DNA of 64,000 nt from Microbispora sp. NBC_01189. GTDB taxonomy: Bacteria; Actinomycetota; Actinomycetes; Streptosporangiales; Streptosporangiaceae. The translations under genes were made by a program, and so were the position numbers. The notes under the pieces are model-generated. The model made no database searches and was not told the DNA's origin. It saw nothing but the letters and a program-made list of their open reading frames with translations. This document shows positions 33,459 through 46,821 of this stretch, one piece after another. Location of the stretch: assembly GCF_036010665.1 (NCBI RefSeq), contig NZ_CP108581.1, forward strand, positions 1,332,001 through 1,396,000, in the 5' to 3' direction. Position 1 is the stretch's first letter. Every line of letters starts with the position of its first letter.

Positions 33459-34256
33459 ATGGCGAAGGAAACGGACCCCGGGCAGGCCGGGGAGGCCAGG
33501 GAGGCCATCACCTGTGAGAAGGCCCGGCGAGCCGGCGTGGCCGACGGAGAGAAGACGGCGTACTTCAAGATTTTCATTGAGGACCCCGCGTTCGAGCCTC
33601 CCGCCGTTCGGTGCATTTTCGAGCAGTTCGAAATTCAGCAGTCGGAGCTTCTGAACGAGCGGGCGAAGGCCCTGGGGCTGATCGAACAACAGGCGCAGGG
33701 CGCCCTGGTGACCCTGAGCCGGCAGGTGAGCGAGGTTCAGGCGATCAGCGCCGGCCTTAACCCCGACATCCTCGCGTTGGAACGTGCCGGCGCGCCCCAT
33801 CGGGGCGAGTCGTGGGACGAGGTGCGGTTCCTGACGCCGGAGGAGGCCGTCCGGATGCGGCTGGAGCAGAAGATCCGGAAACACAACGCGGACATCGAGG
33901 GTCACGTGACCCTGCTGACCACCGCGGACAGCAACTGGCTGCAGACGTGGTGGCGGTACAAGGAGGAGGCGCGCAAGGCGCTGCACGCGGCCGAGACCCT
34001 GGTCATCTGTTACCGGGACGGTCTCCTGAGCACCCACGAGAACGCCGGTGAGATCGCCCGGAGGTGGCGGCCCCGGCGGTTCGAACTGCTCGACGACTGG
34101 TTCGAGGACCCACAGGCCCGGCTCCGGGCCGCGATGCCGAGAGGCGTCCGCGACAGCGCCGACCAGGCCTGGGAGCAGTGGCTCGACCTGTGGCGGCGTG
34201 ACATGAACCCTCGCTCGATCGAGAGCGGCGACCACAACCACCACCCGGATCGGTGA
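33459..34256 (+). CDS. Helical protein of unknown function, first gene of Ter-type operon
   Basis: A 265-residue, mostly alpha-helical soluble protein (IFEQFEIQQSELLNERAKAL, ALVTLSRQVSEVQ, EAVRMRLEQKIRKHNADI, WWRYKEEARKALHAAETLV). I recognise no domain. ATG 33459 is preceded by GGGAGGGG; a longer frame to 33249 looks non-coding. Its end overlaps the lipoprotein gene (GTGA), so the two are coupled. By position it may be the cytosolic partner of the membrane and TerD-like proteins that follow. Confidence 0.7.
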   Translation: MAKETDPGQAGEAREAITCEKARRAGVADGEKTAYFKIFIEDPAFEPPAVRCIFEQFEIQQSELLNERAKALGLIEQQAQGALVTLSRQVSEVQAISAGLNPDILALERAGAPHRGESWDEVRFLTPEEAVRMRLEQKIRKHNADIEGHVTLLTTADSNWLQTWWRYKEEARKALHAAETLVICYRDGLLSTHENAGEIARRWRPRRFELLDDWFEDPQARLRAAMPRGVRDSADQAWEQWLDLWRRDMNPRSIESGDHNHHPDR

Positions 34257-34984
34257 ACACCGTGAACACTCCTCCCCGGCGCTCCCGCGCGGCACTCGCG
34301 GCCCTCGCCCTCGCCACCCTGTCGGCCGCGGGCTGCTTCGCCGACGACAGACAGACGGCGTCCTGCGGCGTAGTCATGGACATCACCGGATTCCGTGGCT
34401 ACGAGGTCTCGAAGTCCATCGTCGACCGGAACCTGCCCGCGTTCCTGGACGGCTGCGGATGGGTGGCCTACGCCGCGATCACCGGAAACTCGGAGGGCTC
34501 CCCGTGCCAGGAGGCGCCCATACCGCTCTACGCCGACACGAACAACGAACTCACCGACAAGAGAGTCCACCAGAAGCTGCTCCAGGAGGCCGCGGCACGA
34601 GCCGAACGCCTGCGGACCTGCGCCCTGGACGACGCCAGGGGGTCCGACGTCCTGGGCGGGCTCCGCGTCATGGCCGACCGGCTGGCCGCCGCGCCCGACT
34701 CCGGCGGGGAACGCAGGATCGCCGTGTTCAGCGATCTGATGAGCAATACCGGGGGTCTCGACCTGAGCGCGTGCGACGTCGGCGCCGAGTCCGCCCGTAC
34801 GAGCATCGTGACCGGGTTGAAGGAAAAGGAGCTGATCGCCGATCTCGGGGGCTCGGCGATCGACGTCTACGGCTTCAACCTGCTGTCCGAGCGCCGGCCG
34901 GAATGCGTCCCCCCGCTCGAGTCCCTGTGGAAATTGATCTTCGCCACGGCCGGCGTCGGCGCGTCGAACCTCACCATCCATTAG
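34253..34984 (+). CDS. Lipoprotein, possibly with a degenerate von Willebrand A-like fold
   Basis: A 243-residue protein with a type II signal peptide (RRSRAALAALALATLSAAGC; lipid-modified Cys about 28). The mature part has SCGVVMDITGFRGYEV near the start and RRIAVFSDLMSNTGGLDL later, spaced like the first and last strands of a vWA domain (DxT then a D in the fourth strand), though the MIDAS motif is incomplete. It is anchored outside the membrane. GTG 34253 overlaps the upstream stop; GTG 34262 is an alternative. The four-TM protein follows after 32 bp. Confidence 0.72.
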   Translation: MNTVNTPPRRSRAALAALALATLSAAGCFADDRQTASCGVVMDITGFRGYEVSKSIVDRNLPAFLDGCGWVAYAAITGNSEGSPCQEAPIPLYADTNNELTDKRVHQKLLQEAAARAERLRTCALDDARGSDVLGGLRVMADRLAAAPDSGGERRIAVFSDLMSNTGGLDLSACDVGAESARTSIVTGLKEKELIADLGGSAIDVYGFNLLSERRPECVPPLESLWKLIFATAGVGASNLTIH

Positions 34985-35016
34985 CGATCCCCGCATCCCT
35001 CCCCGGAGGAGTCTCC

Positions 35017-36288
35017 ATGCCCATGGCCGTGAAATCTCTCACCCGCACCCGGCAGGACGCGCACGACGTGACCGTTCCCCCGGCCAGGTGGCGGCCCGCC
35101 CACGTCCGCCTGCCCGACTGGGCCGCGCTGCGGAGCCGCGCGGAGTCCAGGGGCGCGGCGGACGCCGGAAGCAAGGCTCTCGACACGGTCACGATCAAGA
35201 CGCAGGGCTTCGAACCGCAGCATCTCCTCGTCCTCGACGCCGAGCGGCAACTGGCCCTTGAGGATCTCAACGCGCAGTTCCAGGAGCAGGAGCTGGCCGC
35301 ACGGTCCGCGCAGGCGGCCCACGTCAGGCACTCCGAGGCCGTCCAGGAGCAGTACGTCCGCGACCGCACCGCCTACGAGATGGCGCACGGACGGGTGGAG
35401 CGCCTGGAGCTCGGGCCGTCCCGGTGGGTGGGAGACGGCAGGCCCAGCTCGATCGCCCTCGGCGGCGGCCTGCGGGAGATGCTCCGCGTGTGGGGCGTGC
35501 CGGTGCTGCTCCTGCTCGTGCTGCTCACCATCGAGGTCCCCATCTACTACGCGACGTTCCTCGCCTGGGGCGACGCGACGATCATGACGTACGCGCTGGC
35601 CGTGGGCGCGATCTTCGTCTTCGTCTTCGGACCGCACATGTACGGCCGCAGCTTCCGCGAGTGGCAGGAACACCGCGGGCGGCGCGGGCGCCGGGCCGAG
35701 GACGACGAGGAGGGAGAAGGCGGACGTGGACGCCGGCGCGGCCTCGCCGGCCGCCCGGTCATCCTGTTCCTCATCCCGGTGATCTGGCTCGCCGCCATCG
35801 GCGCGGTCGTGTCGCTGCGGCTGGTGGCGATCTCCGGGACCACCGAGATCAGGCTGTCGGGTACGACCATCACGATCCCTCCGGCGACCGAGGGCTGGAA
35901 GCTGTTCGCCACCGTCGTCCTGTTCCTGGCATTGATGATCTTCACTGCTTTGATCGCCACGGAGCTGGGGCGCCGTACGGGCAACCCGAACGACCGGGAT
36001 CTGAAGGAGCAGCGGATGAAGCTGCACCGTGCCGTGCAGGCCCTGGAGATCGCGCAGGCACGTCAGGAGGAGTCCGACAGGTACGGCGCCGAGCTCGGCG
36101 ACTACCTGGCGACCCTCAAGCAGAAGCGGGACGTGTACACGGCGCAGATCGACGGCGGCTTCGACCATGTGGAGGCCATCTACATGGACGCGCTCATAGG
36201 CGCGCTCGACGATCCGGACGCCTCACGGTACGGGCCGGCGATCCTCGACCGGCACCAGCGCCGTCATTACACCCAGGCGGATTCCTGA
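35017..36288 (+). CDS. Four-TM membrane protein of the Ter-type operon
   Basis: A 423-residue protein. Residues 1-150 are cytosolic with a coiled-coil-like stretch (LEDLNAQFQEQELAARSAQAA). Four membrane segments lie at about 157-180, 190-211, 246-268 and 293-315, with a charged loop RRGRRAEDDEEGEGG between the second and third. A cytosolic C-terminal coiled coil follows (QRMKLHRAVQALEIAQARQEES). GGAGGAG precedes ATG 35017. I do not recognise a named family. Context suggests the membrane core of a Ter-like stress complex, which is inferred. Confidence 0.75.
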   Translation: MPMAVKSLTRTRQDAHDVTVPPARWRPAHVRLPDWAALRSRAESRGAADAGSKALDTVTIKTQGFEPQHLLVLDAERQLALEDLNAQFQEQELAARSAQAAHVRHSEAVQEQYVRDRTAYEMAHGRVERLELGPSRWVGDGRPSSIALGGGLREMLRVWGVPVLLLLVLLTIEVPIYYATFLAWGDATIMTYALAVGAIFVFVFGPHMYGRSFREWQEHRGRRGRRAEDDEEGEGGRGRRRGLAGRPVILFLIPVIWLAAIGAVVSLRLVAISGTTEIRLSGTTITIPPATEGWKLFATVVLFLALMIFTALIATELGRRTGNPNDRDLKEQRMKLHRAVQALEIAQARQEESDRYGAELGDYLATLKQKRDVYTAQIDGGFDHVEAIYMDALIGALDDPDASRYGPAILDRHQRRHYTQADS

Positions 36289-36298
36289 AGGACGTCAG

Positions 36299-36859
36299 AT
36301 GAGTGTGAACCTCTCGAAGGGCGCCGACGCCCCGATCTGCGACCTGACCAGGATCCTCGTCGGTCTCGGCTGGAAGGCCGCGGGCGAGGACGCCGACCTC
36401 GACGCCTCGGCGCTGCTGGTGAGCGGAGCCGGCCGGGTGCTGACCGACAAGCACTTCGTCTTCTACCACAACCTGACCAGCCCGGACGGCTCGGTCGAGC
36501 ACACCGGCGACGACCGGACCGGATCGAGCGGCGGAGACTGCGAGGTAATCCGGGTCGACCTCGCGGAGGTTCCCGGCCGCTGCGCGCGGATCGTCTTCGC
36601 CGTGTCGATCTACGAGGGCGAGGTCCGCGGGCAGACCTTCGGCCAGGTGCGCGACGCGTACATCCGGGTGGTCGACGAGACGACCTCCGCCGAGCTGATC
36701 CGCTACGACCTCACCGAGGAGGCGTCGGCGTACCCTGCCGTGATCTTCGGTGAGCTCTTCCTGCACAGGACGGGGTGGCGCTTCCGGGCGATCGGCGAGG
36801 GCCACAGCGGCGGGCTTCGCGCTATCGCGACCGTCTTCGGTGTGGACGTGGCCTCGTGA
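36299..36859 (+). CDS. TerD-family calcium-binding stress protein
   Basis: A 186-residue TerD-domain protein: MSVNLSKGADAP start, VGLGWKA, then the calcium-site pattern DADLDASALLV with GDDRTGSSGGDCEVIRVDL (about residues 60-80) and IVFAVSIYEGE. TerD proteins bind calcium and take part in tellurite, phage and stress responses. ATG 36299 lies ten bases after the upstream stop, and the end overlaps the next gene as GTGA, so all belong to one operon. Confidence 0.92.
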   Translation: MSVNLSKGADAPICDLTRILVGLGWKAAGEDADLDASALLVSGAGRVLTDKHFVFYHNLTSPDGSVEHTGDDRTGSSGGDCEVIRVDLAEVPGRCARIVFAVSIYEGEVRGQTFGQVRDAYIRVVDETTSAELIRYDLTEEASAYPAVIFGELFLHRTGWRFRAIGEGHSGGLRAIATVFGVDVAS

Positions 36860-37944
36860 TCCTCCGCATCTTCCGCTGGCCGCTCGGCGTGACGGCGTTC
36901 GGCCTGCTGACCGCGCTCGTGCTCGGCGGGCCGAAGGCGTTCGTGCTGGTGGCCGTCCTGGCGATCCTGGAGATCTCGCTGTCGTTCGACAACGCGGTGG
37001 TGAACGCGCGGGTGATCGAACGGATGAGCCCGCTCTGGCAGCGGATGTTCCTCACGGCCGGCATCGTGATCGCGGTGTTCGGGATGCGGCTGTTGTTCCC
37101 GCTGCTGGTCGTCGGGATCACCGCCCGGATGAGCCCGGGCGAGGCGATCGGGCTGGCGGTGAACGACGCCGCCGAGTACGGCAGGCGCCTGCACGAGGCG
37201 CACCCGCTCATCGCGGCGTTCGGCGGCGTTTTCCTTCTCATGATCTTCCTGGACTTCATCTTCGAGGAGCGCGAGTTCGCGTGGCTGGCCTGGCTGGAGC
37301 GGCCGCTCGCGCGGATCGGCAAGCTCGACCAGCTGTCCGTCGTGGTCGCCCTGGTCGTGCTGGTCGCGACCACCACCTACCTCGCTCCGGAACCCGGGCC
37401 GGCGCTCGTCGCCGGAGCTCTGGGGATCGTCACGTACCTGCTGGTCAACAGCCTGGGGAAGTTGTTCGAGGCGGAACAGCGGGAGGAGGACCCGCGACGG
37501 CCGCCGGGCCCGGTCGCCGCCGCCGGCCGGGCCGGCCTGTCCCTCTTCCTCTACCTGGAGGTGCTGGACGCCTCGTTCTCCTTCGACGGGGTCGTGGGCG
37601 CCTTCGCGATCAGCGACGAGCTCCTGATCATCACCCTCGGCCTGGGGATCGGCGCGATGTACATCCGTTCACTCACGATCTTCCTGGTCCGCCGGGGCAC
37701 GCTGGACGAGTACGTCTACCTGGAGCACGGCGCCCACTGGGCGATCGGGGCGCTGGCCGCGATCATGCTGATCGGCCTCGGCCGCTCCGTACCGGAGATC
37801 CTCACCGGCCTGGTCGGGCTCGCCTTCATCGGTACGGCGACGGCGTCCTCGGCCCTGCGCAACCGGCGCGAGAACGCCGGTCGGGACGCCGCCCCGGCCG
37901 GGGCGGCGCCGTCGCGAGGAACGTCACGCACAGATGAGAGGTGA
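36856..37944 (+). CDS. DUF475/TerC-like integral membrane protein
   Basis: A 362-residue membrane protein with about nine helices. The TerC-type repeats are seen as EISLSFDNAVVNARV (about residues 34-48) and LEVLDASFSFDGVVGAFAIS (about 232-251), each with the conserved FD in a helix, thought to bind metal. It matches the DUF475 branch of TerC relatives. GTG 36856 overlaps the TerD stop, and the end overlaps the next gene. TerC works with TerD in a proposed membrane metal-sensing complex; function here is inferred. Confidence 0.9.
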   Translation: MILRIFRWPLGVTAFGLLTALVLGGPKAFVLVAVLAILEISLSFDNAVVNARVIERMSPLWQRMFLTAGIVIAVFGMRLLFPLLVVGITARMSPGEAIGLAVNDAAEYGRRLHEAHPLIAAFGGVFLLMIFLDFIFEEREFAWLAWLERPLARIGKLDQLSVVVALVVLVATTTYLAPEPGPALVAGALGIVTYLLVNSLGKLFEAEQREEDPRRPPGPVAAAGRAGLSLFLYLEVLDASFSFDGVVGAFAISDELLIITLGLGIGAMYIRSLTIFLVRRGTLDEYVYLEHGAHWAIGALAAIMLIGLGRSVPEILTGLVGLAFIGTATASSALRNRRENAGRDAAPAGAAPSRGTSRTDER

Positions 37945-38570
37945 AGACGGTGCCGGACAACCACAGAGGGCCGGACGACCACAGAGGGCCAGACGACTAC
38001 AGGGTGGTCCTCACCAAGGAAGCGCCGAGGATGTCGATCCCGCGCGGGGGCGGGCAGATGCGGATCAACCTCGACTGGAGATCGTCGGAGACGGTCCCCG
38101 TCGACCTGGACCTGTGCTGCCTGTGGGAGCTGACCGACGGCAGCCGGGGCTGCGTCCAGGCGCTCGGTGACAAGTTCCGGGTGCCGAAGGACGGCGCCGA
38201 TCCGGTGATCATGCTGGACCGGGACGAGCGGCGGGGCGGCAGCGGCGGCGAGAACATGATCGTCGACATGGCGCAGGTCCATCTGATCCGCCGGATCCTC
38301 GTCTTCGCGCACATCTTCGACGGGGTGCCCAACTGGGCCGCGGCCGGGGCGGTCACCACGGTGTTTCCGGTGAGCGGCCCGCCCATCGAGGTCATGCTGG
38401 ACGACGCCAACCCGCGGGCCCGGGTGTGCGCGGTCTTCATGCTCCACAGGGTGGGCGAGGAGCTCGGCATCCGCCGTGAGATGAGCTACTTCAGCCGGGG
38501 GCACCGGGGCATGGACGCGGCCTACCAGTGGGGCCTCACCTACCGGGCGGGGCGCAAGACGTACCACTAG
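37941..38570 (+). CDS. TerA-like TerD-superfamily protein
   Basis: A 209-residue protein with a TerD-like beta-sandwich: VDLDLCCLWELTDGSRGCVQALGD (about residues 53-76), DPVIMLDRDERRGGSGGENMIVDM and RRILVFAHIFDGVPNWAAAG. This is the TerA variant rather than TerD itself. The first 20 residues contain two HRGPDD units from an 18-bp repeat. It starts by GTGA overlap with the DUF475 gene and is the last gene of the operon, closed by the hairpin at 38584-38611. Confidence 0.85.
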   Translation: MKTVPDNHRGPDDHRGPDDYRVVLTKEAPRMSIPRGGGQMRINLDWRSSETVPVDLDLCCLWELTDGSRGCVQALGDKFRVPKDGADPVIMLDRDERRGGSGGENMIVDMAQVHLIRRILVFAHIFDGVPNWAAAGAVTTVFPVSGPPIEVMLDDANPRARVCAVFMLHRVGEELGIRREMSYFSRGHRGMDAAYQWGLTYRAGRKTYH

Positions 38571-38583
38571 AGAGTGTCCGAAA

Positions 38584-38611
38584 GGAGCGCCCCGGTCACC
38601 CGGGGCGCTCC
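38584..38611. terminator. Bidirectional hairpin between Ter-type and CHAT operons
   Basis: GGAGCGCCCCGG and its perfect complement flank a 4-nt loop (TCAC), 13 bp past the TerA-like stop and 30 bp from the stop of the convergent cyclase-like gene. Confidence 0.85.
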
Positions 38612-38641
38612 GGTGTTCCCGCCTTCAGGCCGGCGAGCGCG

Positions 38642-40045
38642 TCAGGAGCCCCCGGCCCGGCGAACGGGAGGCGGCACCAGGATCCACGCGGTCTCCTCGA
38701 AGCCCTTCTCCGGCAGCTTGGCACTGACCTGCTGGAAGTCGTCGGGGTCCAGATCACCGCTCCCCTGTGCGACGACCTCCATGAAGACGGAGTCCGAAAC
38801 GGCGATGACCATCGTCGCCGTCTCCTCGTTCGCGAGCGCGGCGCGGACGGACGGCGCGTCGAGCACGCGGTGGACCGCGATGACCGTCCGGCCGACGTAT
38901 CCGTTCGCGCCGCGCCGGATCGAGCCCCGGCACATGGCGACCCGGAGCCGGAGCATCGCGTCCCTGTTCAGCTCGGCGTTGACGTCGTGCAACTCCAGTC
39001 GCAGCGCCCGCACGAGGTCGGGGATGACCCGCCTCTCCTCGATGTCCGGCGGCAGCGCCGCGAACTGACCGTCGCCCTGCTCCTGCAGGTCGACGCGGGA
39101 CTCGTCGATGCCCGCCCGGCGCCGGGCGGCGGCCAGCACGGTCACCAGCCGCTTCTGCGCCCGCAGAGCGGCCTCGTCGTCGGTGAACCTGCTGTACTTC
39201 TCGATGTCCGTCGCGACGCACAGCCGCACGGCGGCCCCGCCGGTCTTCTGCCGCGCCCCCGCGTGCGGCCTCTCCGGCGCGGCAAGCGGCTCGCCGAAGG
39301 TCTCGGCCGTCGCCAGCGCGGCTTCCAGGAGATCCGAGCGCGTACGGCGGACCCGGCTGATCGTGGTGCCGACGACGAGGCTGCCCGCGAGGTCCGGAAC
39401 GTCGCCGGGCAGTTCGAGCAGCACGCGCAGGCCGTACGACCGGCGGGTCAGCGGACGCCCGGGCTCGGCCGACAGGGTGAACCCGAACGACGGGCGCCCC
39501 GCGCCGAAGACGCGCGGCTCCGGGTCGCCCGGCACGTCGCGCAGCCGGTTGAGCAGCCGCCGGTACCGCCCTTCCGCGCCAGCCGGAGCACCCGGCGACG
39601 CGGCCGGCGGCCCACTGCTCGGCCACGGGCCCAGGACGTCGTCCATCAGCGTCTCGCCCACCCCGAGACGCAACGCGACCGCGTCGTCGTCGACGAGGCG
39701 CACCTCGAACCGCACTCCCGTGTAACGGCGGTCGGCGGGCAGTTCCTCCAGGTCGAACGCGAACAGCGCCTCGTAGTGCCGTACGCCCATGGTCTCGGCG
39801 CGGCCGCGCAACACCGGGGAGAGCGTCTCGTCCGGCACCGGGTGAACGAAGGGCCGGGCGATGTCCACCCCGGACTCGCGCGGGCGCTGCGTCCCGTGGC
39901 CGAGCAAATGCTCCGCCCCGTACAGGTCGGAGCGGGCGAGCAGTTCCCCGGAGGGGAAGCCGTCCGGCGCCTCGGACGGTGCCTCGGACGGTGCGTCGTC
40001 GGCCTGCCCGTACGGACCGGGGAGGGCGGCTGTCTGGTCGGTCAT
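38642..40045 (-). CDS. Class III nucleotide-cyclase-like protein with N-terminal unknown domain
   Basis: A 467-residue protein. Residues about 272-425 follow a class III cyclase fold: RLCVATDIEKYSRF puts D280 at the first metal-aspartate position, QEQGDGQFAAL gives GDG with D325 at the second, and NGYVGRTVIAVHRVLDA keeps the arginine (393) but has Ile 389 where the catalytic Asn is expected. Residues 85-235 are a separate beta-rich region I do not recognise. Such domains occur with NTPase and protease effectors in actinobacteria. The ATG overlaps the CHAT gene stop as ATGA. It may make or sense a nucleotide signal; activity is uncertain because of the missing Asn. Confidence 0.72.
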   Translation of the reverse strand: MTDQTAALPGPYGQADDAPSEAPSEAPDGFPSGELLARSDLYGAEHLLGHGTQRPRESGVDIARPFVHPVPDETLSPVLRGRAETMGVRHYEALFAFDLEELPADRRYTGVRFEVRLVDDDAVALRLGVGETLMDDVLGPWPSSGPPAASPGAPAGAEGRYRRLLNRLRDVPGDPEPRVFGAGRPSFGFTLSAEPGRPLTRRSYGLRVLLELPGDVPDLAGSLVVGTTISRVRRTRSDLLEAALATAETFGEPLAAPERPHAGARQKTGGAAVRLCVATDIEKYSRFTDDEAALRAQKRLVTVLAAARRRAGIDESRVDLQEQGDGQFAALPPDIEERRVIPDLVRALRLELHDVNAELNRDAMLRLRVAMCRGSIRRGANGYVGRTVIAVHRVLDAPSVRAALANEETATMVIAVSDSVFMEVVAQGSGDLDPDDFQQVSAKLPEKGFEETAWILVPPPVRRAGGS

Positions 40046-42993
40046 CTCGGTGTCGCCTCTCTTGCCTGCGCCGTCGGAGCTTCACCCGCGGCGCGCGTGA
40101 CGGAGCCCAAGCCGAAGAACGTGAACGCCGCCCACAGGTGCGGCTCCTGCGCGGTGACCCGCTGGGCCGAGGCGGCACGGGCCTGTGCGTGCCGGAGAGC
40201 GCTCACCGGCTCCAGCCCGTCGAGCAGCCAGGACTCGTGGAAGTCGGCCATCAGGTAGAAGCCGGCGTGCTGGCCGACCGGGTAGAGGGTCGTGATCAGC
40301 CCGGTGGGCCCGGAGGTGAGGAACGCGCGGCTCAGTCCGATGACGCCGTCCGCGGTCGCCGTTCCGCCACCGGTCTCACAGGCCGCGAGGATCACCAGGT
40401 CGGCCGCGAGGCCGAGCCCGGGCACCTCCAGGGGGCGCAGGTACCCGTCGTGACCGGCGGAGGGCGCGAGCACGAGGTACGACATCATCGGGTCGCTGTG
40501 GGCCTCGGTGACCGCGCGGCCGTGGGTGCCGAAGTACAGGACCGTCCCGGTGCCCGCGACCTCGCGCAGGGTCGCGGCGGTGGCCTTCTCCTCCGTGTAC
40601 AGCCGGACGGGTTCGCCGTACAGGCCGGCGATGTCGCCGAAACGTTCCTGCGTCCAGTCCAGCTGCTCCCCCTCGGGGAGCGGGCGCGGATTGACCAGCG
40701 CCACCAGTTCGGGAGGGGCGTTCGCGGGCCGTCCCGGTCGCGGCGCGGTCAGATCGGGGATCATGGCCAGCGCGGGCAGCACCCGGATCGCGTGGCGCTG
40801 GACGAGGTACGTCCCGGACGCGTCGCGGAGCGCGGCGAACGGCACGTGGAACAACTCGAGGTGCGGAACGACCGTGACCGGTTCGTCCGGATCGGCGGGC
40901 AGCAGGCCGGCCGGGACGACATCCCACAGCACCTCGCCGAGCCGGCGCAGTGCGGCGGCCATCGCCGCCCGCGACGCCGCGTCGTGCCGCGGCATCCGCG
41001 CGAGCCGGCCGAACTCCTTCACCGTCTCCTCCAGCCCGGCCCGGTCGACGCGGCGGGTGACCCGTGTGAGCGGGCCCCCGCGCGGCCAGACCCAGACGGT
41101 GAGCAGGTCGCCCGCGAGGAAATACTCGACGACGACGGCGTCGTGGCGGGTGAGGATGTCCCTCAGCCCCTCGCGGCTCACCGGCGGGGCGCCGCCCAGC
41201 CCCCGGGCCGGATCGCCGGGTCCGGCCCGGTTCTCGCGCAGCGTGTCGCCGAAAGCGCGGGCCCGGGCCATCTCGGAGGCCACCAGGGCGTCCTCGGGCG
41301 CGTCGAGATCGAGCAGCAGCGTCACCATCCGCTCGTAGAACGGCAGTGCCTGATCAGTTGAGATGATCTTTTCCCAGTGGGAGTCGAGCAGGGCACGCCA
41401 CACCTCGACGTAGCCGGCGGTGACACCGGCCGCCTCACGGGCCTGGTCCAGCACGAATCTCGCCGCGGCCGCGGGGGCCGACCGGGCGAGGCGGTCACGC
41501 ATGAGAGCGAGCGCGTCGGCGCCGCCGCGTGCGGACAACAGCACCAGTTCACCCGCCGACCCGGGCTCGGGCGCCCCGTGGGCGGCCAGCGCGTCCGCCG
41601 TCTCCCGCATCGCGTCCTGACCGGCGGCCAGGGCGTGGTCCACGCGCGCCGCCGACGACTCGATCGTCTCCGGGCCGTCCGACGGCGATCCCGTCGAGCG
41701 CAGCACGCCGCACACGGTCTCGGCCGCCTCCGCGCATTCGGCCGCGGCGGCGGCGAGGCCGGAGGACGACGGGCCAGCACCCGCCAGATCCGCGATCCGG
41801 CGCAACGACTCACCCAGCGGTTCGGCCGTGTCCCGAAGGAACCGGAGCGTGTCGAGCCAGGGGGTGAAGGCCCCGGGCCCGAGCGTGATCTCACGCCGTA
41901 CGTCCGCCGCGGCGACCAGCGCCTCGGGCAGGACGGCGAAGCGGGATCCGGCGAACGCGCAGCGGATCCGCGCGTCGCACAGCCCGAGCAGGTCGATCAC
42001 GCGGCCGGTGCTCGTGGACGCCTCGCCGCCCGCGGACAACTCGGCCGCGCGGTCGAGGATCGGCGCGGCCTGACCGAACCTCCCGGCGGCCAGCAACTCG
42101 ATGCCGAGACGGCGCAGCGCCGCCCCGTCTTCGATCCTGTCTCCCACCCCGAAGAGGGTCGGCGGGGGCGCGTCCGCTCTCGCGAGGACCACGAGTTCCC
42201 ATCCGGCGCCCGGAGCCGCCGGCGCCAGGCCGACGGCGACGTCCGGGCCGCGCGCCAGCCGGAGGAACCCTCCGCCGTGCTCCGCGAACGCGCTCGCGGA
42301 GGAGACGGTCACGGTCGTGCCGTACGCCGGGCCGGCGACGACCCGCCACCGGCCCCGGAGCGACGCGGCGTCGAGCAGCGCACGAAGGGCCTCCAGGGAG
42401 GCGGGCCGCGGGGACGTGACCGGCTCCATCGCGCCGGGGCGGGGTTCGCGGGCCGGAGCGGACGCGACATCAGGAACCCGAGCGGACGCGACATCAGGAA
42501 CCCGAGCGGACGCGACATCAGGAACCCGAGCGGAGGCGACATCAGGAGCCCGAGCGGCGCCGGGCCCCAGCATGCGGAGGTGGCCCCGGGGCGTGAAGCG
42601 CTGTCTCACGCGGGCGACGACGGCACTCCCCACCCAGCCGGGGCCCGTGTAGACGGCGTCGAACCACCAGCCGCCGGCGTCCTCCGAGAGGTACCCGTCC
42701 AGGGTGCCCGTTCCGTCCGGCCACGAGGTCGACACCAGCGGAAAGGGCCCGTCCACCCGCCAGGAGCCGGTCAGCGGCTCCCCCGACGCCAGGCGCGCCT
42801 CGGCGGCGCCGCCGGGACGCAGCCACAGCTCGCCGTGGGCGAACAGCCGGAGCAGGAAGGAGTCCCGCGGTCGTGGCGGCACCTCACGCCACTCGGCGAG
42901 CCACCCGTCCGTCCGGTACACGGGCTCGGCGAGCAGGACCGTGGCGGGCTCGCCGGCGAGCGCCGCTCCGTCCCCGCTCACCTCCCCGTTCAC
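40042..42993 (-). CDS. CHAT-domain caspase-like protease
   Basis: A 983-residue protein. The C-terminal 350 residues are a CHAT domain: VPHLELFHVPFAAL, LYFGTHGRA (catalytic His about 824), VILAACETGGGT (catalytic Cys about 868) and GLITTLYPVGQHAGFYLM. The middle is helical and TPR-like (GIELLAAGRFGQAAPILDRAAELS, ALVASEMARARAFGDTL). The N-terminal 150 residues form a beta-rich module, followed by four 8-residue repeats (RVPDVASA type). CHAT proteins cleave partner proteins in conflict and death pathways. GTG 42993 overlaps the upstream cyclase-like stop, and its own stop overlaps the next start, so the three are translationally coupled. Confidence 0.88.
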   Translation of the reverse strand: MNGEVSGDGAALAGEPATVLLAEPVYRTDGWLAEWREVPPRPRDSFLLRLFAHGELWLRPGGAAEARLASGEPLTGSWRVDGPFPLVSTSWPDGTGTLDGYLSEDAGGWWFDAVYTGPGWVGSAVVARVRQRFTPRGHLRMLGPGAARAPDVASARVPDVASARVPDVASARVPDVASAPAREPRPGAMEPVTSPRPASLEALRALLDAASLRGRWRVVAGPAYGTTVTVSSASAFAEHGGGFLRLARGPDVAVGLAPAAPGAGWELVVLARADAPPPTLFGVGDRIEDGAALRRLGIELLAAGRFGQAAPILDRAAELSAGGEASTSTGRVIDLLGLCDARIRCAFAGSRFAVLPEALVAAADVRREITLGPGAFTPWLDTLRFLRDTAEPLGESLRRIADLAGAGPSSSGLAAAAAECAEAAETVCGVLRSTGSPSDGPETIESSAARVDHALAAGQDAMRETADALAAHGAPEPGSAGELVLLSARGGADALALMRDRLARSAPAAAARFVLDQAREAAGVTAGYVEVWRALLDSHWEKIISTDQALPFYERMVTLLLDLDAPEDALVASEMARARAFGDTLRENRAGPGDPARGLGGAPPVSREGLRDILTRHDAVVVEYFLAGDLLTVWVWPRGGPLTRVTRRVDRAGLEETVKEFGRLARMPRHDAASRAAMAAALRRLGEVLWDVVPAGLLPADPDEPVTVVPHLELFHVPFAALRDASGTYLVQRHAIRVLPALAMIPDLTAPRPGRPANAPPELVALVNPRPLPEGEQLDWTQERFGDIAGLYGEPVRLYTEEKATAATLREVAGTGTVLYFGTHGRAVTEAHSDPMMSYLVLAPSAGHDGYLRPLEVPGLGLAADLVILAACETGGGTATADGVIGLSRAFLTSGPTGLITTLYPVGQHAGFYLMADFHESWLLDGLEPVSALRHAQARAASAQRVTAQEPHLWAAFTFFGLGSVTRAAGEAPTAQAREATPR
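42461..42556. repeat. Four in-frame 24-bp repeats in the CHAT gene
   Basis: Units begin at 42461, 42485, 42509 and 42533; the first three are identical and the fourth differs at two positions. They encode eight-residue repeats in the linker after the N-terminal module. Confidence 0.85.
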
Positions 42994-43547
42994 GTCGCCT
43001 CGCCGTACGCGTAGACGTACGCCGGGACGTGCCTGCCCTGCGCGGTCGCGGTGACCCGGCGGAACTGCTCCCGGTGCAGGCCGGTCGACTCCGGATAGGC
43101 CAGTTCGTCGAGGAGCCGGGCACTGAGGATCAACGCCAGATCGTGTTCGGCGCTTTCCAGCAGGGCCGCGCGGAGGTCGTCGCTGCCGCACAGGTCGCGG
43201 GCGACCCGCACCGCCTGTCCGTCGAACCCCTCGTCGGTCAGCCGGACCAGCCCCTGGTGGAAGGAGATCCGGCAGCGCAGGCGGTGCGCGCCGGACAGCC
43301 GCCGGTTCCGCCGCCACAGCGCGTTGCGCAGTTCCCGGCTCAGATCGGAGACCACGCGCGCCTCGTTGACCCCCGAGCTCAACACGAGCAGGAGGCCCGA
43401 CGGCAGGACCTGAAGAGCGATCTGGTCGACCCCGGCCGCCGCGCTCGCGCTCTCGACGACGTCGGCGACCGGGGAGTACGGATGGTCCACCGGGCCTTCG
43501 GCCTCCACCACCGCGCACAACCGCCGCACCGGGTCCGACCCGTCCAT
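42990..43547 (-). CDS. Degenerate nucleotide-cyclase-like domain protein
   Basis: A 185-residue protein that aligns by eye to the cyclase-like domain of the gene at 38642: LRNALWRRNRRLSGAHRLRCRISFHQGLVRLTDEGFDG resembles the R..R..MH.G.V....G..G segment, then AVRVARDLCGSDDLRAAL and LILSARLLDEL. The metal-binding GDG is replaced by PSG (49-51) and the first aspartate is not present, so it should be inactive, perhaps a binding or regulatory partner. ATG 43547 follows GGAGGG. It begins 39 bp after the Crp-like gene and overlaps the CHAT gene (GTGA). Confidence 0.65.
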   Translation of the reverse strand: MDGSDPVRRLCAVVEAEGPVDHPYSPVADVVESASAAAGVDQIALQVLPSGLLLVLSSGVNEARVVSDLSRELRNALWRRNRRLSGAHRLRCRISFHQGLVRLTDEGFDGQAVRVARDLCGSDDLRAALLESAEHDLALILSARLLDELAYPESTGLHREQFRRVTATAQGRHVPAYVYAYGEAT

Positions 43548-43586
43548 TCGCCCTCCGCCCACCCAGCCGCCCACACAGCGTCCTCG

Positions 43587-44363
43587 TCAGTCCTCCTCAC
43601 TGTGCGGGCCCGGCGGCGGCCAGACTCCGTATTCCGGCGGGATTTCGCTGATTCCCGCCGCGTCGCACAGAGCCTGCCTGTCTCTGATCAGGATCCTTCC
43701 GTACCGCGTCTCGATCACCTTGCGGGCCTTGAGCTCCCGCAGGATCTTGTGCACGCTGTTCTCCCGGGAGCCGATCATGGCGGCCAGTTCCTGCTGCGTC
43801 AGGGACGCGATCAGCACGCCCTCGCGCGTCGCCTCGCCGTACCGGGTGGCGAGGTAGAGCAGCATCCGCACCGCGCGGACGGGCACGGGGGAGGTCCCGA
43901 TCTCGATGCGCTGCCAGGTGGCGTGGCGCAGCTTTCCCACCACGGTCACGTTCACCGCGAGTGCCGCGCCGGGATGCCGGGCGAGGAAGTCGAGGAAATC
44001 GCGCTGACCGATCCTGCGCACGAAGCACGGGCCGACCGTCACCACCGACGCGACCCGGGGGCTGCCGTCCAGCGCGGCGAACTCCCCGACGAGGTCTCCC
44101 CCCGCGCGGATCGCGAGCAGGGCCACCTTGCCGTCCGCACTGTTGCTCAGGACTTTCACGTATCCCTGGATGATGAGGAAGACGTGCCTGGTCCTCCTGT
44201 CACCCTCCATGACGATCGTCTCTCCGCTGGCCACCTGGAGCGGATCACCGGCCGAGAGCATCTCGTCTCGCGTCACCGGGTCAAGCGAACCGAGAAAGGT
44301 ATTGGGAGGCCATGACCCCACCCGCCGGGGGCCGTGTGAAGGTTCTGGCGTCGATGCGGCCAT
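43587..44363 (-). CDS. Crp/Fnr-family regulator heading the CHAT operon
   Basis: A 258-residue regulator. The cNMP-type sensor domain spans about residues 20-150 (LQVASGETIVMEGDRRTRHVFLIIQGYVKVLSNS, shown by VMEGD and GDLVGEFAALDGSPR), and the C-terminal winged helix has LTQQELAAMIGSRENSVHKILREL. The phosphate-binding arginine region of CAP reads EFAALDGSPRVAS, so cyclic nucleotide binding is plausible. GGGAG lies six bases before ATG 44363. As first gene of the operon with cyclase-like proteins, it may sense the nucleotide they make; that is inference. Confidence 0.88.
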   Translation of the reverse strand: MAASTPEPSHGPRRVGSWPPNTFLGSLDPVTRDEMLSAGDPLQVASGETIVMEGDRRTRHVFLIIQGYVKVLSNSADGKVALLAIRAGGDLVGEFAALDGSPRVASVVTVGPCFVRRIGQRDFLDFLARHPGAALAVNVTVVGKLRHATWQRIEIGTSPVPVRAVRMLLYLATRYGEATREGVLIASLTQQELAAMIGSRENSVHKILRELKARKVIETRYGRILIRDRQALCDAAGISEIPPEYGVWPPPGPHSEED

Positions 44364-44493
44364 TTACGCTCCCTGGATTCACCACGGGATCAGATTTTTT
44401 CGATTTATAGCGCAAACTCCGCGAAAAGGCTGGATCGTTCCCAAGAAACAATGTCACGATCTGTCGGCGTCACCTCGACCCCGTGGAGGACCC
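44364..44493. promoter_or_regulatory. AT-rich divergent promoter region
   Basis: The 130 bp between the Crp-like gene and the divergent peptidase gene contain the most AT-rich run nearby (TTTTTTCGATTTATAG near 44395). The minus strand has TATAAA near 44405. It probably drives both directions. Confidence 0.5.
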
Positions 44494-46821
44494 GTGGACA
44501 CGGTCGCATTCTGGTCCAGGCGCCTCGCCGAACATCTCGTTCCGGCCGAGGCCGCCTCGGCCGGACGTGTGGGCGAGGCGTATGTGGCCGGTGGCCGGCG
44601 GCGCCGCGACCTCCTGCGCGCCGCCGCCGCCGAACCCGGGGGCTTCGGCGGCGGCGGCGCCGGGGAACTGCCGATCATCCTCGACGCGCTCCGCGTCGTC
44701 TCCGGCGACCTGCTCGGCCTGCTGGCCTCCCATCCGCTGGTCAATCTGCTCATGCTCCTGGCTCTCCGTTCGGGGCGGCCGGCCGCCGGCTTTGGCGTCC
44801 CTCCGCGCGCTCCCCGGCCCGGCCCCGCTGCCTCACCCGACCCCGCTCCCGTGCTCGACCAGACCATCGCCGGGCTCCGGAACCGGCTGCGGGCCCAGGG
44901 CGTCGCCGGCGACCGCGCGGAGTCGCTCACCTACGACACCCTCAAGCTGGTCTTCCAGCAGGACCGCGACCCCGCCGAGATCGAGGCGTTCCTCCGGGCG
45001 CTTTCCGGCAGCCCACCCGCGGGGCCTCCGGCCGGGCCGGCGACCACGCGGGCGCTCGCCGGAAGAGGCGGTGACTCCTCCGACTGGCTGCTGCCGCCAT
45101 GGCTCTGGTTCTACTTCCTCGGGGTCCTCGCCCCGGGCGTGCCCGGGGCGCTGGACGGCCTCCGGCAGGACGCCGACGGCATGACGGTGCTCGTCGGCTC
45201 CCTGCTGACCAACGCCGAGCGTGGCGCGGCGGCGCTCCTGACCGCGACCGGGGCCCTGGAGTTCCTCCCCGCGCTGCTCCTGCTGGCCGGGATCGCCGGG
45301 GTGCTGTTTCCGGGGGCGCGCGGGCGATGGGCCGAACACCGGCACCGGCTGCTGCCCAGCGACGACCCGGTGATCGAGGCGATGACGGCCTTCGTCCGGA
45401 GCCACGCCCCCGCCGCCGGTGTCCGCCTCGGCGAACGGCACGACCGGCTGGCCCGGGTCTATCCGGTCGGCTGGCGGGAGGCGCGCGTCGCGGTCTACCC
45501 CCCGCTGGTGAGCCTGTGGAGCCGGGACCGGGAGGCGGCCCGGGCCGTGCTGCTCCACGAGGTCGCCCACCTGCGCCAGGGAGACCACCTGATCGTCGGT
45601 CTCGCCGGCCCGTTCGCCTGGGTCGTCAGGATGTGGGGCGCGGCCCTCGCCGTACTCACGCCGGTGTCGGCGGTGTATCTCGTCGCGGACGGCGCCGGAG
45701 GGTCGTCGCTGTTCGCGGCCGTCCTGAAGGTCGTCGCCGCGCTCCCGATCACCCTGATCCTGCCCGTGGCGGGCCTCTGGGCCGCGGAGCTCAGCGCGGA
45801 CCGTTACGCGATGAGCGCCGTCGGGCCCGCCGCGCTGGCCCGCGCCCTCGGCCCCGCCCGCCCGCGGGCGCACCCCGTCCTGCGTGCCCTCGCGCTGCTG
45901 AGCCATCCTCCGCTACGGCTCCGCCTGTGGGCCGCGCGCCTGTGGCCCGGCGGTACGGCGGCCCTGGCCGCTCTCTGGCCCCTGGCGATCGTGGTGCGCA
46001 TCGCCGCGATCGTGGTCTTCCAGCTGATCGCCCTGAACCTCACCGGGTCCTCCTTCGGCGAGTCGGTGCGGACGGTGATCGGGTGGCTGCCCGAGCGGTT
46101 GTCGCCGGCCCGGACCCAGCTCACCGAGATCACCGCCCTCCTCGTCGCCTGGCCCCTGATCGCCCCGCTCTGGCTCCGCGTCTGGACGCCGGTCCACGCG
46201 TCCCGGCAGCGCTTCGCGCCCTACCTGGTCTCGGCCCTCGTCCCCGGCCTGCTCGCCTCGGGAAGTCTCGGGGCCGGCCCGTCGACAGGCTCCGGACCTG
46301 CCGGTCCGGTCCCCGGCGCCACCGCCACAGTCACGGCCGTGGTGACGACCGCCGCACCGCAGGCGACGGCGGACCGGACCGGCCTGATCGACGACCGGCC
46401 GTGGACCGGCCAGGAGCTTCCCGTCGACCTGCGCATCCAGGCTCCGTACCGGAAACTCGAACAGCACGGCGACGACCCGGAGTGGCGGAGCGTCGCGGCG
46501 GGGTGGCTCGGCGCGGGCGCCTGGCGGGCCGAGCGCGACGGACGGCTCGCCTTCTCCGACCTGGCGAAGCGGCCCGGCCTGCGACCGACGGAGGGCGGCT
46601 GGCTGCGGATCGGCGACACGGTGACCTTCTGGCTGCCCGTCGAGCGGGACGCGGCCGGCGAGACAATGATCATCGAGATCAACGGGACCATCGACCTCAG
46701 CGGTGGTCAGGCGGTCATGGACGCGCTGTGGGCGCGCAAGCCCGACGGCTCCGCGGCGGATCTGGGCTCTTTCCCCGACCTGGAGTTCACCGCCGTCCTC
46801 GACGTCTCCACCGCGCCCTGA
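44494..46821 (+). CDS. Membrane-bound HEXXH (M48/M56-type) metallopeptidase
   Basis: A 775-residue integral membrane protein. The zinc site is VLLHEVAHLRQGDHLI (HEVAH about 354-358), with the third ligand probably in AAELSADRYAMSAV (about 431), as in M48 peptidases. At least seven hydrophobic helices surround it, and a C-terminal soluble domain (about 640-775) ends SFPDLEFTAVLDVSTAP. GTG 44494 follows GGAGG at five bases. It is divergent from the Crp > CHAT operon and shares its promoter region, so a functional link, such as signal release at the membrane, is plausible but unproven. Confidence 0.8.
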   Translation: MDTVAFWSRRLAEHLVPAEAASAGRVGEAYVAGGRRRRDLLRAAAAEPGGFGGGGAGELPIILDALRVVSGDLLGLLASHPLVNLLMLLALRSGRPAAGFGVPPRAPRPGPAASPDPAPVLDQTIAGLRNRLRAQGVAGDRAESLTYDTLKLVFQQDRDPAEIEAFLRALSGSPPAGPPAGPATTRALAGRGGDSSDWLLPPWLWFYFLGVLAPGVPGALDGLRQDADGMTVLVGSLLTNAERGAAALLTATGALEFLPALLLLAGIAGVLFPGARGRWAEHRHRLLPSDDPVIEAMTAFVRSHAPAAGVRLGERHDRLARVYPVGWREARVAVYPPLVSLWSRDREAARAVLLHEVAHLRQGDHLIVGLAGPFAWVVRMWGAALAVLTPVSAVYLVADGAGGSSLFAAVLKVVAALPITLILPVAGLWAAELSADRYAMSAVGPAALARALGPARPRAHPVLRALALLSHPPLRLRLWAARLWPGGTAALAALWPLAIVVRIAAIVVFQLIALNLTGSSFGESVRTVIGWLPERLSPARTQLTEITALLVAWPLIAPLWLRVWTPVHASRQRFAPYLVSALVPGLLASGSLGAGPSTGSGPAGPVPGATATVTAVVTTAAPQATADRTGLIDDRPWTGQELPVDLRIQAPYRKLEQHGDDPEWRSVAAGWLGAGAWRAERDGRLAFSDLAKRPGLRPTEGGWLRIGDTVTFWLPVERDAAGETMIIEINGTIDLSGGQAVMDALWARKPDGSAADLGSFPDLEFTAVLDVSTAP

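What the first reader, a model, noticed from the sequence alone, without database searches (positions are those of the whole stretch)
38642..44363. Candidate nucleotide-signal/caspase operon: Crp, degenerate cyclase-like, CHAT, cyclase-like
Seen: four tightly coupled minus-strand genes with GTGA and ATGA overlaps. Knowledge: CHAT proteases, class III cyclases and Crp sensors each occur in conflict systems. Inference: the active-looking cyclase-like protein (D280, D325, but Ile at the Asn position) makes or binds a nucleotide sensed by Crp or the degenerate partner (PSG instead of GDG), which controls the CHAT protease. I know of no described system with exactly this composition.
Basis: partly seen in the sequence, partly recalled or inferred. 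Interest (0 to 1): 0.85.

Follow-up and report, generated by a model that had tools for sequence, protein, structure and literature searches.

The report
Crp–cyclase–CHAT protease signalling operon
Four neighbouring genes of a soil actinobacterium look like a small alarm circuit, with an enzyme that probably makes a cyclic-nucleotide signal, a protein that probably senses it and a caspase-like cutting enzyme, and relatives of the signal maker sit beside known anti-phage effectors although the model libraries tried do not recognise them.

Summary
In detail: four minus-strand genes encode Crp, a degenerate cyclase-like protein, a CHAT protease and a second cyclase-like protein. The order Crp>CYC>CHAT>CYC recurs in at least 7 of 249 genomes sampled. 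The last protein's C-terminal domain is a class III nucleotidyl cyclase: its family profile finds Ma1120 (E 1e-3), Foldseek E is 1e-7, and both metal Asps and the Arg are kept. Isoleucine at the Asn position is no sign of inactivity, because most relatives lack Asn and active Ma1120 has Ala there. The partner (PSG) has lost both Asps and the Arg: a pseudo-cyclase. Crp keeps the cNMP phosphate-binding motif; CHAT keeps its His and Cys. None of 30 family members scanned matches a cyclase model in Pfam or PADLOC. In 88 loci chosen for this domain, 48 have Crp directly upstream. Relatives pair with PycTM, SMODS-associated NUDIX (a CBASS/DRT effector domain), TIR and, independently, CHAT. The unit is largely co-inherited with a convergent Ter/vWA/membrane block. 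Best reading: a Pycsar-like cyclic-mononucleotide circuit with a CHAT effector, a new variant of a known kind. Product, trigger, CHAT activation and phage defence are untested.

The parts
43587..44363 (-). Crp-type transcription factor (258 aa): cNMP-binding domain + Crp HTH
   Evidence: Pfam PF00027 2.7e-17 and PF13545 2.1e-14; phosphate cassette GEFAALDGSPRVASV keeps Glu94 and Arg103; aligns with solved Crp/Fnr regulators over cassette and helix C
42990..43547 (-). Pseudo-cyclase (185 aa; 194 aa from GTG 43574)
   Evidence: Hits the family profile at about 1e-53; metal Asps replaced by Glu and Ser, Arg by Asp
40042..42993 (-). CHAT (caspase-like) protease, 983 aa, with an uncharacterised N-terminal region and a middle region predicted mostly helical in a low-confidence model
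   Evidence: Pfam CHAT 2e-42 over residues 681-961; His824 and Cys872 invariant in the 7 aligned orthologues
38642..40045 (-). Two-domain cyclase: N-terminal domain (beta-rich in the model, low confidence) + class III nucleotidyl cyclase domain (residues about 273-458)
   Evidence: Asp280, Asp325, Arg393 and Gln321 kept; family profile vs Ma1120 E 1.1e-3; Foldseek E 1.2e-7, TM by target 0.72
44364..44568 (.). Divergent intergenic region between Crp and M48 with conserved blocks AGATCGTGRCA, GGGAACGRTCCAG and TTGCGCTATAAA
   Evidence: Alignment of 5 orthologous regions; in the window the first two blocks bear the arms GATCGT and ACGATC; no sigma-70 consensus promoter was found here; candidate operator/promoter, not tested
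44569..46821 (+). Divergent M48-family peptidase, probably membrane-bound (read from sequence)
   Evidence: PF01435 6e-7 over cut-off; beside the unit in 6 of the 7 loci (not within the 20 kb of L040) and beside CHAT>CYC in L110 and L114
37941..38570 (+). Small convergent protein next to TerC; no Pfam hit; called TerD-like from its look only
36856..37944 (+). TerC / DUF475 membrane protein
   Evidence: PF04332 7.7e-122, PF03741 2.7e-19
36299..36859 (+). TerD domain protein
   Evidence: PF02342 1.6e-62
35017..36288 (+). Membrane protein by its look (MEM), conserved in the convergent block
   Evidence: No Pfam hit; profile comparison with the MEM protein of Crp>CYC>HEAT operons 83%
34253..34984 (+). 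vWA-related putative lipoprotein
   Evidence: No Pfam hit itself; profile comparison 97.4% with a family whose scanned member has OmpA over and VWA_2 below the cut-off; orthologues at 50% or more in the same 7 of 249 genomes as the pseudo-cyclase at 58% or more
33459..34256 (+). Uncharacterised 265-aa protein starting the convergent block
   Evidence: not homologous to the similarly placed protein of other Crp>CYC operons

Best explanation
The four genes are the signalling and effector core of an accessory, Pycsar-like cyclic-mononucleotide circuit. On an unknown trigger, probably read by its N-terminal domain, the two-domain class III cyclase (38642-40045) makes a 3',5'-cyclic nucleotide (inferred). 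The pseudo-cyclase (42990-43547) cannot catalyse and acts as a regulatory partner or nucleotide-binding subunit (loss of residues shown, role inferred). Crp binds the product through its intact phosphate cassette and switches the shared divergent promoter, driving its own operon and the M48 peptidase (motif shown, binding and regulation inferred). The CHAT protease, with intact His-Cys, is the executioner (inferred), in concert with the convergent TerD/TerC/vWA/membrane block. The most likely purpose is a counter-invader or programmed stress response.
For: Fold and residues: class III cyclase by family profile (Ma1120 1.1e-3, metal Asps aligned) and by model; Asp, Asp and Arg kept in most aligned rows. 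Crp cassette: 45 of 54 Crp genes keep Glu and Arg. CHAT His824/Cys872 invariant in 7 of 7. Linkage: Crp directly upstream of the cyclase on the same strand in 48 of 88 loci chosen for the cyclase; the other 6 of the 54 Crp genes found are one gene away from one. Two-domain cyclases: 12 in the gene calls, 9 with CHAT and 3 with SMODS-associated NUDIX within two genes; two more that my gene caller cut, L045 (NUDIX upstream) and the split L041 (CHAT), agree. Known defence effectors beside relatives: PycTM (PF18967 2.8e-7, over cut-off; PADLOC 7e-10) on a Streptomyces plasmid, NUDIX matching CBASS 2TM effectors and the DRT-associated RTasNUDIX (L042, L043), TIR and CHAT in one same-strand run with CYC>Crp>CYC in L098. 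Patchy co-inheritance: CHAT in 2 of 15 genomes of the genus and M48 at 91% or more in the same 2; the vWA and pseudo-cyclase orthologues share the same 7 of 249 genomes. Co-variation: of 186 cyclase columns, column 49 (the Ma1120 Lys101 position) is the one best associated with loss of the Crp Arg (45/0 vs 2/5, p 8e-6).
Against: No activity is shown. The base-selecting Lys and Asp of adenylyl cyclases are Gln321 and Gly382 (or Asn381, by a gapped alignment) here, so the product cannot be named. The co-variation was noticed before it was scanned, rests on two independent events and cannot reach significance on the tree; the simpler residue test gave p 0.64. CHAT carries no recognised nucleotide-binding domain. 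The CHAT model was too poor to use (pLDDT 43.5). P0003 gave no match in 50,697 phage records, which neither helps nor excludes defence. 23 of 88 cyclase loci had no listed partner within three genes by my gene calls (one of these, L045, does have the NUDIX). G063 keeps the pseudo-cyclase and Ter block without CHAT or Crp within the 20 kb seen.
Confidence: 0.5

Rival explanations
1. A stress or envelope-homeostasis circuit rather than immunity: the cyclase and Crp set expression of a TerD/TerC/vWA/M48 membrane stress module, and CHAT cleaves a host regulator during development or metal/envelope stress.
For: The convergent block carries TerD and TerC, the divergent gene is an M48 peptidase, and the block is co-inherited with the pseudo-cyclase.
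Against: In L040 the operon stands without the Ter block and M48 in the 20 kb seen. Relatives of the cyclase pair with PycTM, SMODS-associated NUDIX and TIR, which are defence effectors. Patchy presence within the genus fits accessory defence at least as well.
Confidence: 0.3
2. The two-domain cyclase is a nucleotide sensor that no longer catalyses, and Crp answers to cAMP from housekeeping cyclases.
For: Asn is missing at the transition-state site in nearly all members aligned and the Lys/Asp base pair is replaced. Catalytically inactive cyclase domains occur in related conflict systems (PMC7159879, passages seen).
Against: Both metal Asps and the Arg are kept in most members, which is not expected of a dead enzyme. 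Ma1120 is active with Ala for Asn, and putting Asn there lowered or abolished its activity (PMC4215837, passages). The pseudo-cyclase of the same locus has lost all three residues.
Confidence: 0.2
3. The four genes are neighbours by chance or by hitch-hiking and do not work together.
For: 23 of 88 cyclase loci have none of the listed partner families within three genes by my gene calls.
Against: Same order in at least 7 of 249 genomes down to 50-51% identity in CHAT and cyclase, gene overlaps, and CHAT beside the two-domain cyclase in other settings, L044, L110 and L114.
Confidence: 0.03

Closest known systems
Pycsar (PycC cyclase with PycTM or PycTIR)
   Same: Class III-type mononucleotide cyclase encoded beside a cNMP-binding (CRP-like) protein and an effector; relatives of this cyclase sit beside PycTM or TIR; window Crp matches the cNMP-binding part of the PycTIR model.
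   Different: No PADLOC PycC model hits any of 30 family members; none of the 11 window proteins scanned is PycTM or TIR; the likely receptor is a DNA-binding Crp and the effector a CHAT protease; a pseudo-cyclase is added; Pycsar base-recognition residues (Y50/D94/R97 or F100/R142/Q144; PMC11224242, passages) were not compared.
Class III adenylyl cyclase Ma1120 (Mycobacterium avium)
   Same: Best solved match by profile and fold; both have a residue other than Asn before the conserved Arg.
   Different: Lys101 of Ma1120 is Gln321 here; Asp157 is Gly382 by the ungapped alignment to the mutant 5d0g, Asn381 by the gapped one to the wild type.
NTP-dependent conflict systems of multicellular bacteria (Kaur et al. 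2020, PMC7159879; passages and one section seen)
   Same: cNMP cyclase domains, inactive cyclase versions, caspase-like peptidases, vWA proteins, TerD and CRP-like factors in bacterial, often actinobacterial, systems; TCAD9 (ternary complex associated domain) proteins lie beside relatives L044 and L046.
   Different: No MoxR or VMAP core among the 11 window proteins scanned; the word CHAT is not in its main text and the passages seen do not hold Crp>CYC>CHAT>CYC.
CBASS with 2TM-NUDIX effector
   Same: The NUDIX partners of relatives L042 and L043 match CBASS 2TM effector models.
   Different: No CD-NTase match in the four proteins; the nucleotide enzyme would be a class III cyclase.
Type III-E CRISPR Csx29 (Craspase)
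   Same: A CHAT protease as the cutting effector.
   Different: NCBIfam Csx29 E only 0.26, below its cut-off; no Cas family among the 11 window proteins scanned.

Membership tests
Class III nucleotidyl cyclase (P0003) | Class III catalytic-domain fold | tested here: met
   Profile vs PDB 1.1e-3; Foldseek 1.2e-7
Class III nucleotidyl cyclase (P0003) | Two metal-binding Asps | tested here: met
   Asp280, Asp325
Class III nucleotidyl cyclase (P0003) | Transition-state Asn-Arg pair | tested here: inconclusive
   Arg393 kept, Asn is Ile389; Ma1120 lacks the Asn and is active
Class III nucleotidyl cyclase (P0003) | Catalytic activity | not testable with these tools
   needs an assay
Class III nucleotidyl cyclase (P0001) | Two metal-binding Asps and Arg | tested here: not met
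   Glu, Ser and Asp at these positions
CHAT protease (P0002) | CHAT domain over the Pfam cut-off | tested here: met
   146 bits vs 24
CHAT protease (P0002) | His-Cys pair | tested here: met
   His824, Cys872
cNMP-binding Crp (P0004) | Phosphate cassette Glu and Arg plus Crp HTH | tested here: met
Pycsar | Cyclase recognised as PycC | tested here: not met
   0 of 30 members hit PycC
Pycsar | PycTM or PycTIR effector beside the cyclase | tested here: not met
   Not among the 11 window proteins of 33459-46821 scanned with Pfam; met only in relatives
Pycsar | cCMP or cUMP product and phage protection | not testable with these tools
   needs experiment
CBASS | CD-NTase (SMODS) | tested here: not met
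   No such Pfam or PADLOC hit in the four proteins
vWA-MoxR ternary conflict systems | MoxR ATPase and VMAP/iSTAND component | tested here: not met
   None among the 11 window proteins of 33459-46821 scanned; genes further out not scanned
Type III-E CRISPR Craspase | Csx29 model match | tested here: not met
   E 0.26, 10.1 bits vs cut-off 300

The most novel reading that the evidence does not exclude
A so far unannotated family of class III cyclases with Crp receptors is the hub of a modular actinobacterial immune network. It swaps effectors (PycTM, SMODS-associated NUDIX, TIR, HEAT/vWA complexes, tubulin-like proteins, CHAT). In this window it runs a cyclic-nucleotide-gated caspase-like pathway with a dedicated pseudo-cyclase and two outputs, transcription through Crp and proteolysis through CHAT.
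Probability: 0.4. Interest if true: 0.85.

Novelty: new variant of a known kind. Interest (0 to 1): 0.67.

Why it matters
If right, a cyclic mononucleotide would govern a caspase-like protease in bacteria, parallel to nucleotide-gated effectors of CBASS and Pycsar but through a Crp factor and a pseudo-cyclase. The cyclase domain is seen at E 0.001 or better in 164 of 249 genomes of one order sample, yet none of the 30 members scanned hits a cyclase model in Pfam or PADLOC, so a large set of candidate signalling loci may be hidden from annotation that rests on such models. It gives a direct test: does the product bind Crp, and does that release CHAT?

Tried and rejected
Type III-E CRISPR, CBASS and Pycsar membership were tested and not met (see Membership tests). 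The idea that Ile at the Asn position marks inactivity was rejected. The idea that Thr or Asn at the Crp base-contact position tells cAMP from cUMP was dropped: Asn lies there in PycTIR but also in solved actinobacterial Crp proteins 4cyd and 3h3u, which I recall as the cAMP-binding GlxR and Mtb Crp. The label SPFHl joins two unrelated families, so the protein at 33459 is not called SPFH-like here; even for the other family that name is a guess (no PDB hit). The labels VWA and MEM each join two groups that are only related by profile (97% and 83%).

Residue test: cyclase Asp-Asp vs Crp Glu-Arg gave 38/7/7/2, p 0.64, with gaps from gene-start truncation counted as losses. The column scan used 52 of 54 Crp genes (two dropped because the Arg column was a gap) and the most canonical cyclase of each locus, and was run after I had noticed the pattern.

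The CHAT model was unusable. N-terminal regions of CHAT and cyclase gave no meaningful PDB match. M48 relatives at 44-45% in four other genomes of the genus lie in settings without Crp, cyclase or CHAT as far as the sequences read. The other CHAT gene found in this genome is in a sigma/TPR setting (read from sequence). No sigma-70 consensus promoter was found in the operon region. Gene calls in fetched loci come from my own simple GC-frame caller, so gene starts and some lengths are rough and some genes are missed: in L045 it missed the NUDIX gene and cut the cyclase. The 88 loci are not independent: several come from one genome, and L043 and L146 overlap.
Full report
Observation. The four ORFs are as described. 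CHAT overlaps its upstream neighbour by GTGA and its downstream neighbour by ATGA. The Crp-to-second-gene junction is a short gap, not an overlap. Pfam gives cNMP_binding and HTH_Crp_2 for the first protein and CHAT for the third, and nothing for the two cyclase-like proteins. NCBIfam and PADLOC add nothing for those two. The window lies in a 7.37-Mb genome. G003, of the same genus, has a contig of the same length as the Microbispora amethystogenes record carrying the 87% match, so the genome is very probably a Microbispora.

What the cyclase-like proteins are. [quoted passage not shown] The AlphaFold model of P0003 is usable only for the C-terminal domain (ten-residue blocks of 51-91 pLDDT after residue 270; mean 57.7 overall), and Foldseek ranks Ma1120 first (1.2e-7, TM by target 0.72); an Anabaena uridylate cyclase is also in the list. 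In the 59-row alignment Asp is found at metal site 1 in 45 of 54 rows with a letter, at site 2 in 47 of 59, and Arg in 49 of 59. The Asn position is Ile in the window; of the 52 loci, Asn is found there in only two (L091, L094). Ma1120 itself has Ala there, and changing it to Asn lowered or abolished activity (PMC4215837, passages). The position of Ma1120 Lys101 is Gln321, kept in 52 of 59 rows. P0001 belongs to the same family (about 1e-53) but has Glu, Ser and Asp in place of Asp, Asp and Arg: a pseudo-cyclase. P0003 also has an N-terminal domain shared with the relatives; no known structure was matched by profile.

Conservation as a unit. Crp>CYC>CHAT>CYC is found in the window, L033 (Microbispora amethystogenes), L034-L036 (three Planotetraspora species), L041 and L040. 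Matching contig lengths show that L033, L034, L035 and L036 are places in G003, G147, G159 and G059, so the count is at least 7 of 249 sampled genomes. CHAT orthologues are 50-91% identical to the window's. Within the genus the CHAT gene is in 2 of 15 genomes and the divergent M48 gene at 91% or more in the same two (four more have a relative at 44-45%). The unit is accessory.

Larger system. Downstream lies a convergent block of six genes including TerD and TerC. Its vWA-related protein has orthologues at 50% identity or more in 7 of 249 genomes, the same seven that hold the pseudo-cyclase at 58% or more; weaker vWA matches occur in 28 more genomes. G119 (L040) has the operon without the block in the 20 kb seen, and G063 (L090) has the pseudo-cyclase and the block without CHAT or Crp in the 20 kb seen. 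In L176 two CHAT genes lie in one same-strand run with homologues of the 33459, vWA and membrane proteins, and in L177 a CHAT fragment does; the other 12 of the 14 vWA-chosen loci showed no CHAT. The region between Crp and M48 has three conserved blocks, a candidate operator; the sigma-70 scan found no promoter.

The wider family. P0003 matches at E 0.001 or better in 164 of 249 genomes of the order sample (at most 6 candidates per genome were scored). In 396 genomes of the phylum, 9 had a match to the two-domain profile, and only the window's own protein covered both domains (at most 4 candidates scored per genome, so lower bounds). I used 88 loci (the window and 87 fetched ones) chosen for the domain, not at random, and called genes myself. 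Of 105 cyclase-domain genes, 48 have Crp immediately upstream on the same strand; 54 Crp genes were found among 1412 genes, and the other 6 are separated from a cyclase by one gene. Partners within three genes include HEAT-like/SPFH/vWA sets and others; 23 of 88 loci had none of the listed partners. Twelve two-domain cyclases were called: nine have CHAT within two genes (six of window type, plus L044, L110, L114) and three have SMODS-associated NUDIX (Pfam-confirmed for L042 and L043, by my own profile for L046). L045, where my caller had cut the cyclase, also has the NUDIX upstream, and the split L041 has CHAT. L110 and L114 also carry M48 next to the cyclase. L098 has CYC>Crp>CYC>unknown>CHAT>TIR on one strand, with CHAT 5.9e-32 and TIR_2 3.4e-19 in Pfam.

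Links to known defence. On a Streptomyces plasmid (L183) the gene between Crp and the cyclase is annotated Pycsar system effector family protein and matches PycTM over the Pfam cut-off (2.8e-7) and in PADLOC (7e-10). The similarly placed genes of L126, L134, L143 and L145 match PycTM weakly in PADLOC (4 of 4 tested); of five tested in Pfam (these and L138) only L143 shows a PycTM hit, below cut-off. The sixth such locus, L051, has an unrelated gene there (read from sequence). The NUDIX partners of L042 and L043 match CBASS 2TM effectors and RTasNUDIX. TCAD9 proteins lie beside L044 and L046. None of 30 family members matches a cyclase model in PADLOC or Pfam. P0003 has no match in 50,697 phage records and partial matches in 8 of 72,556 plasmid records.

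Does Crp read the product? Crp keeps Glu and Arg of the phosphate cassette in 45 of 54 genes. A test of intact cyclase vs intact Crp gave p 0.64. Scanning all 186 cyclase columns, the one most associated with loss of the Crp Arg is column 49, the Lys101 position of Ma1120: 45 with Gln, none of them lacking the Arg; 7 without Gln, 5 of them lacking it (p 8e-6; next best 1e-3). On a tree both losses need two changes, the Arg losses inside the Gln-loss groups, so this is suggestive and cannot be significant.

Mechanism. Shown by sequence or prediction: fold, residues, linkage, co-inheritance, defence effectors beside relatives. Inferred: that P0003 makes a cyclic nucleotide, that Crp binds it, that P0001 regulates, that CHAT executes, and that the purpose is immunity. 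A stress role linked to TerD/TerC remains a serious rival.

Literature. Kaur et al. 2020 (PMC7159879; passages and one section) describe cNMP cyclase domains, catalytically inactive versions, caspase-like peptidases, TerD and CRP-like factors in conflict systems, but the passages seen do not hold this composition and the word CHAT is not in its main text. The eLife 2021 paper PMC8195603 (passages) mentions cNMP cyclase and caspase domains in related systems. PMC10952713 (passages) lists CHAT in Borvo and type III-E systems. PMC11224242 (passages) describes Pycsar cyclase and receptor residues. The listings of the ten text searches show no paper on this operon; the library lacks most subscription journals, and the 2012 Ter paper is not held.

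Noticed in passing
L111 1-11100, L113, L115, L106, L098: Crp>CYC pairs in operon-like runs with long proteins; those scanned are a vWA protein (L111) and tubulin-like proteins (PF13809; L111, L098), a combination not in the passages of the papers seen.
   Followed up: partly
L183 5399-13008 (Streptomyces plasmid NZ_CP107897.1): Crp, a divergent PycTM, this cyclase family and a 1750-aa TPR protein on a mobilizable linear plasmid beside IS elements.
   Followed up: partly
L051, L055, L056, L058, L099 (similar in L122): Recurrent operon Crp>CYC>711-827 aa protein (weak HEAT match in L051) >unknown>vWA-OmpA>membrane protein; the vWA-OmpA protein scanned (L051) matches ZorB in PADLOC over its OmpA part (5e-9), a hint at Zorya-like parts.
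   Followed up: partly
L042 8690-10619, L043, L045, L046: Two-gene pair SMODS-associated NUDIX > two-domain cyclase; in L046 it lies near radical SAM, TCAD9-APH and nucleoside deoxyribosyltransferase-like genes.
   Followed up: partly
window 42460-42530: Tandem repeat of RVPDVASA in the CHAT protein linker; length of this region varies between orthologues.
   Followed up: no
L041 9171-10999 (G081): The last cyclase gene reads in two overlapping frames; possibly broken or a sequencing error.
   Followed up: partly
L167 6003-10070 (own genome): Second CHAT gene of the genome, behind sigma-factor-like genes; a different setting.
   Followed up: partly
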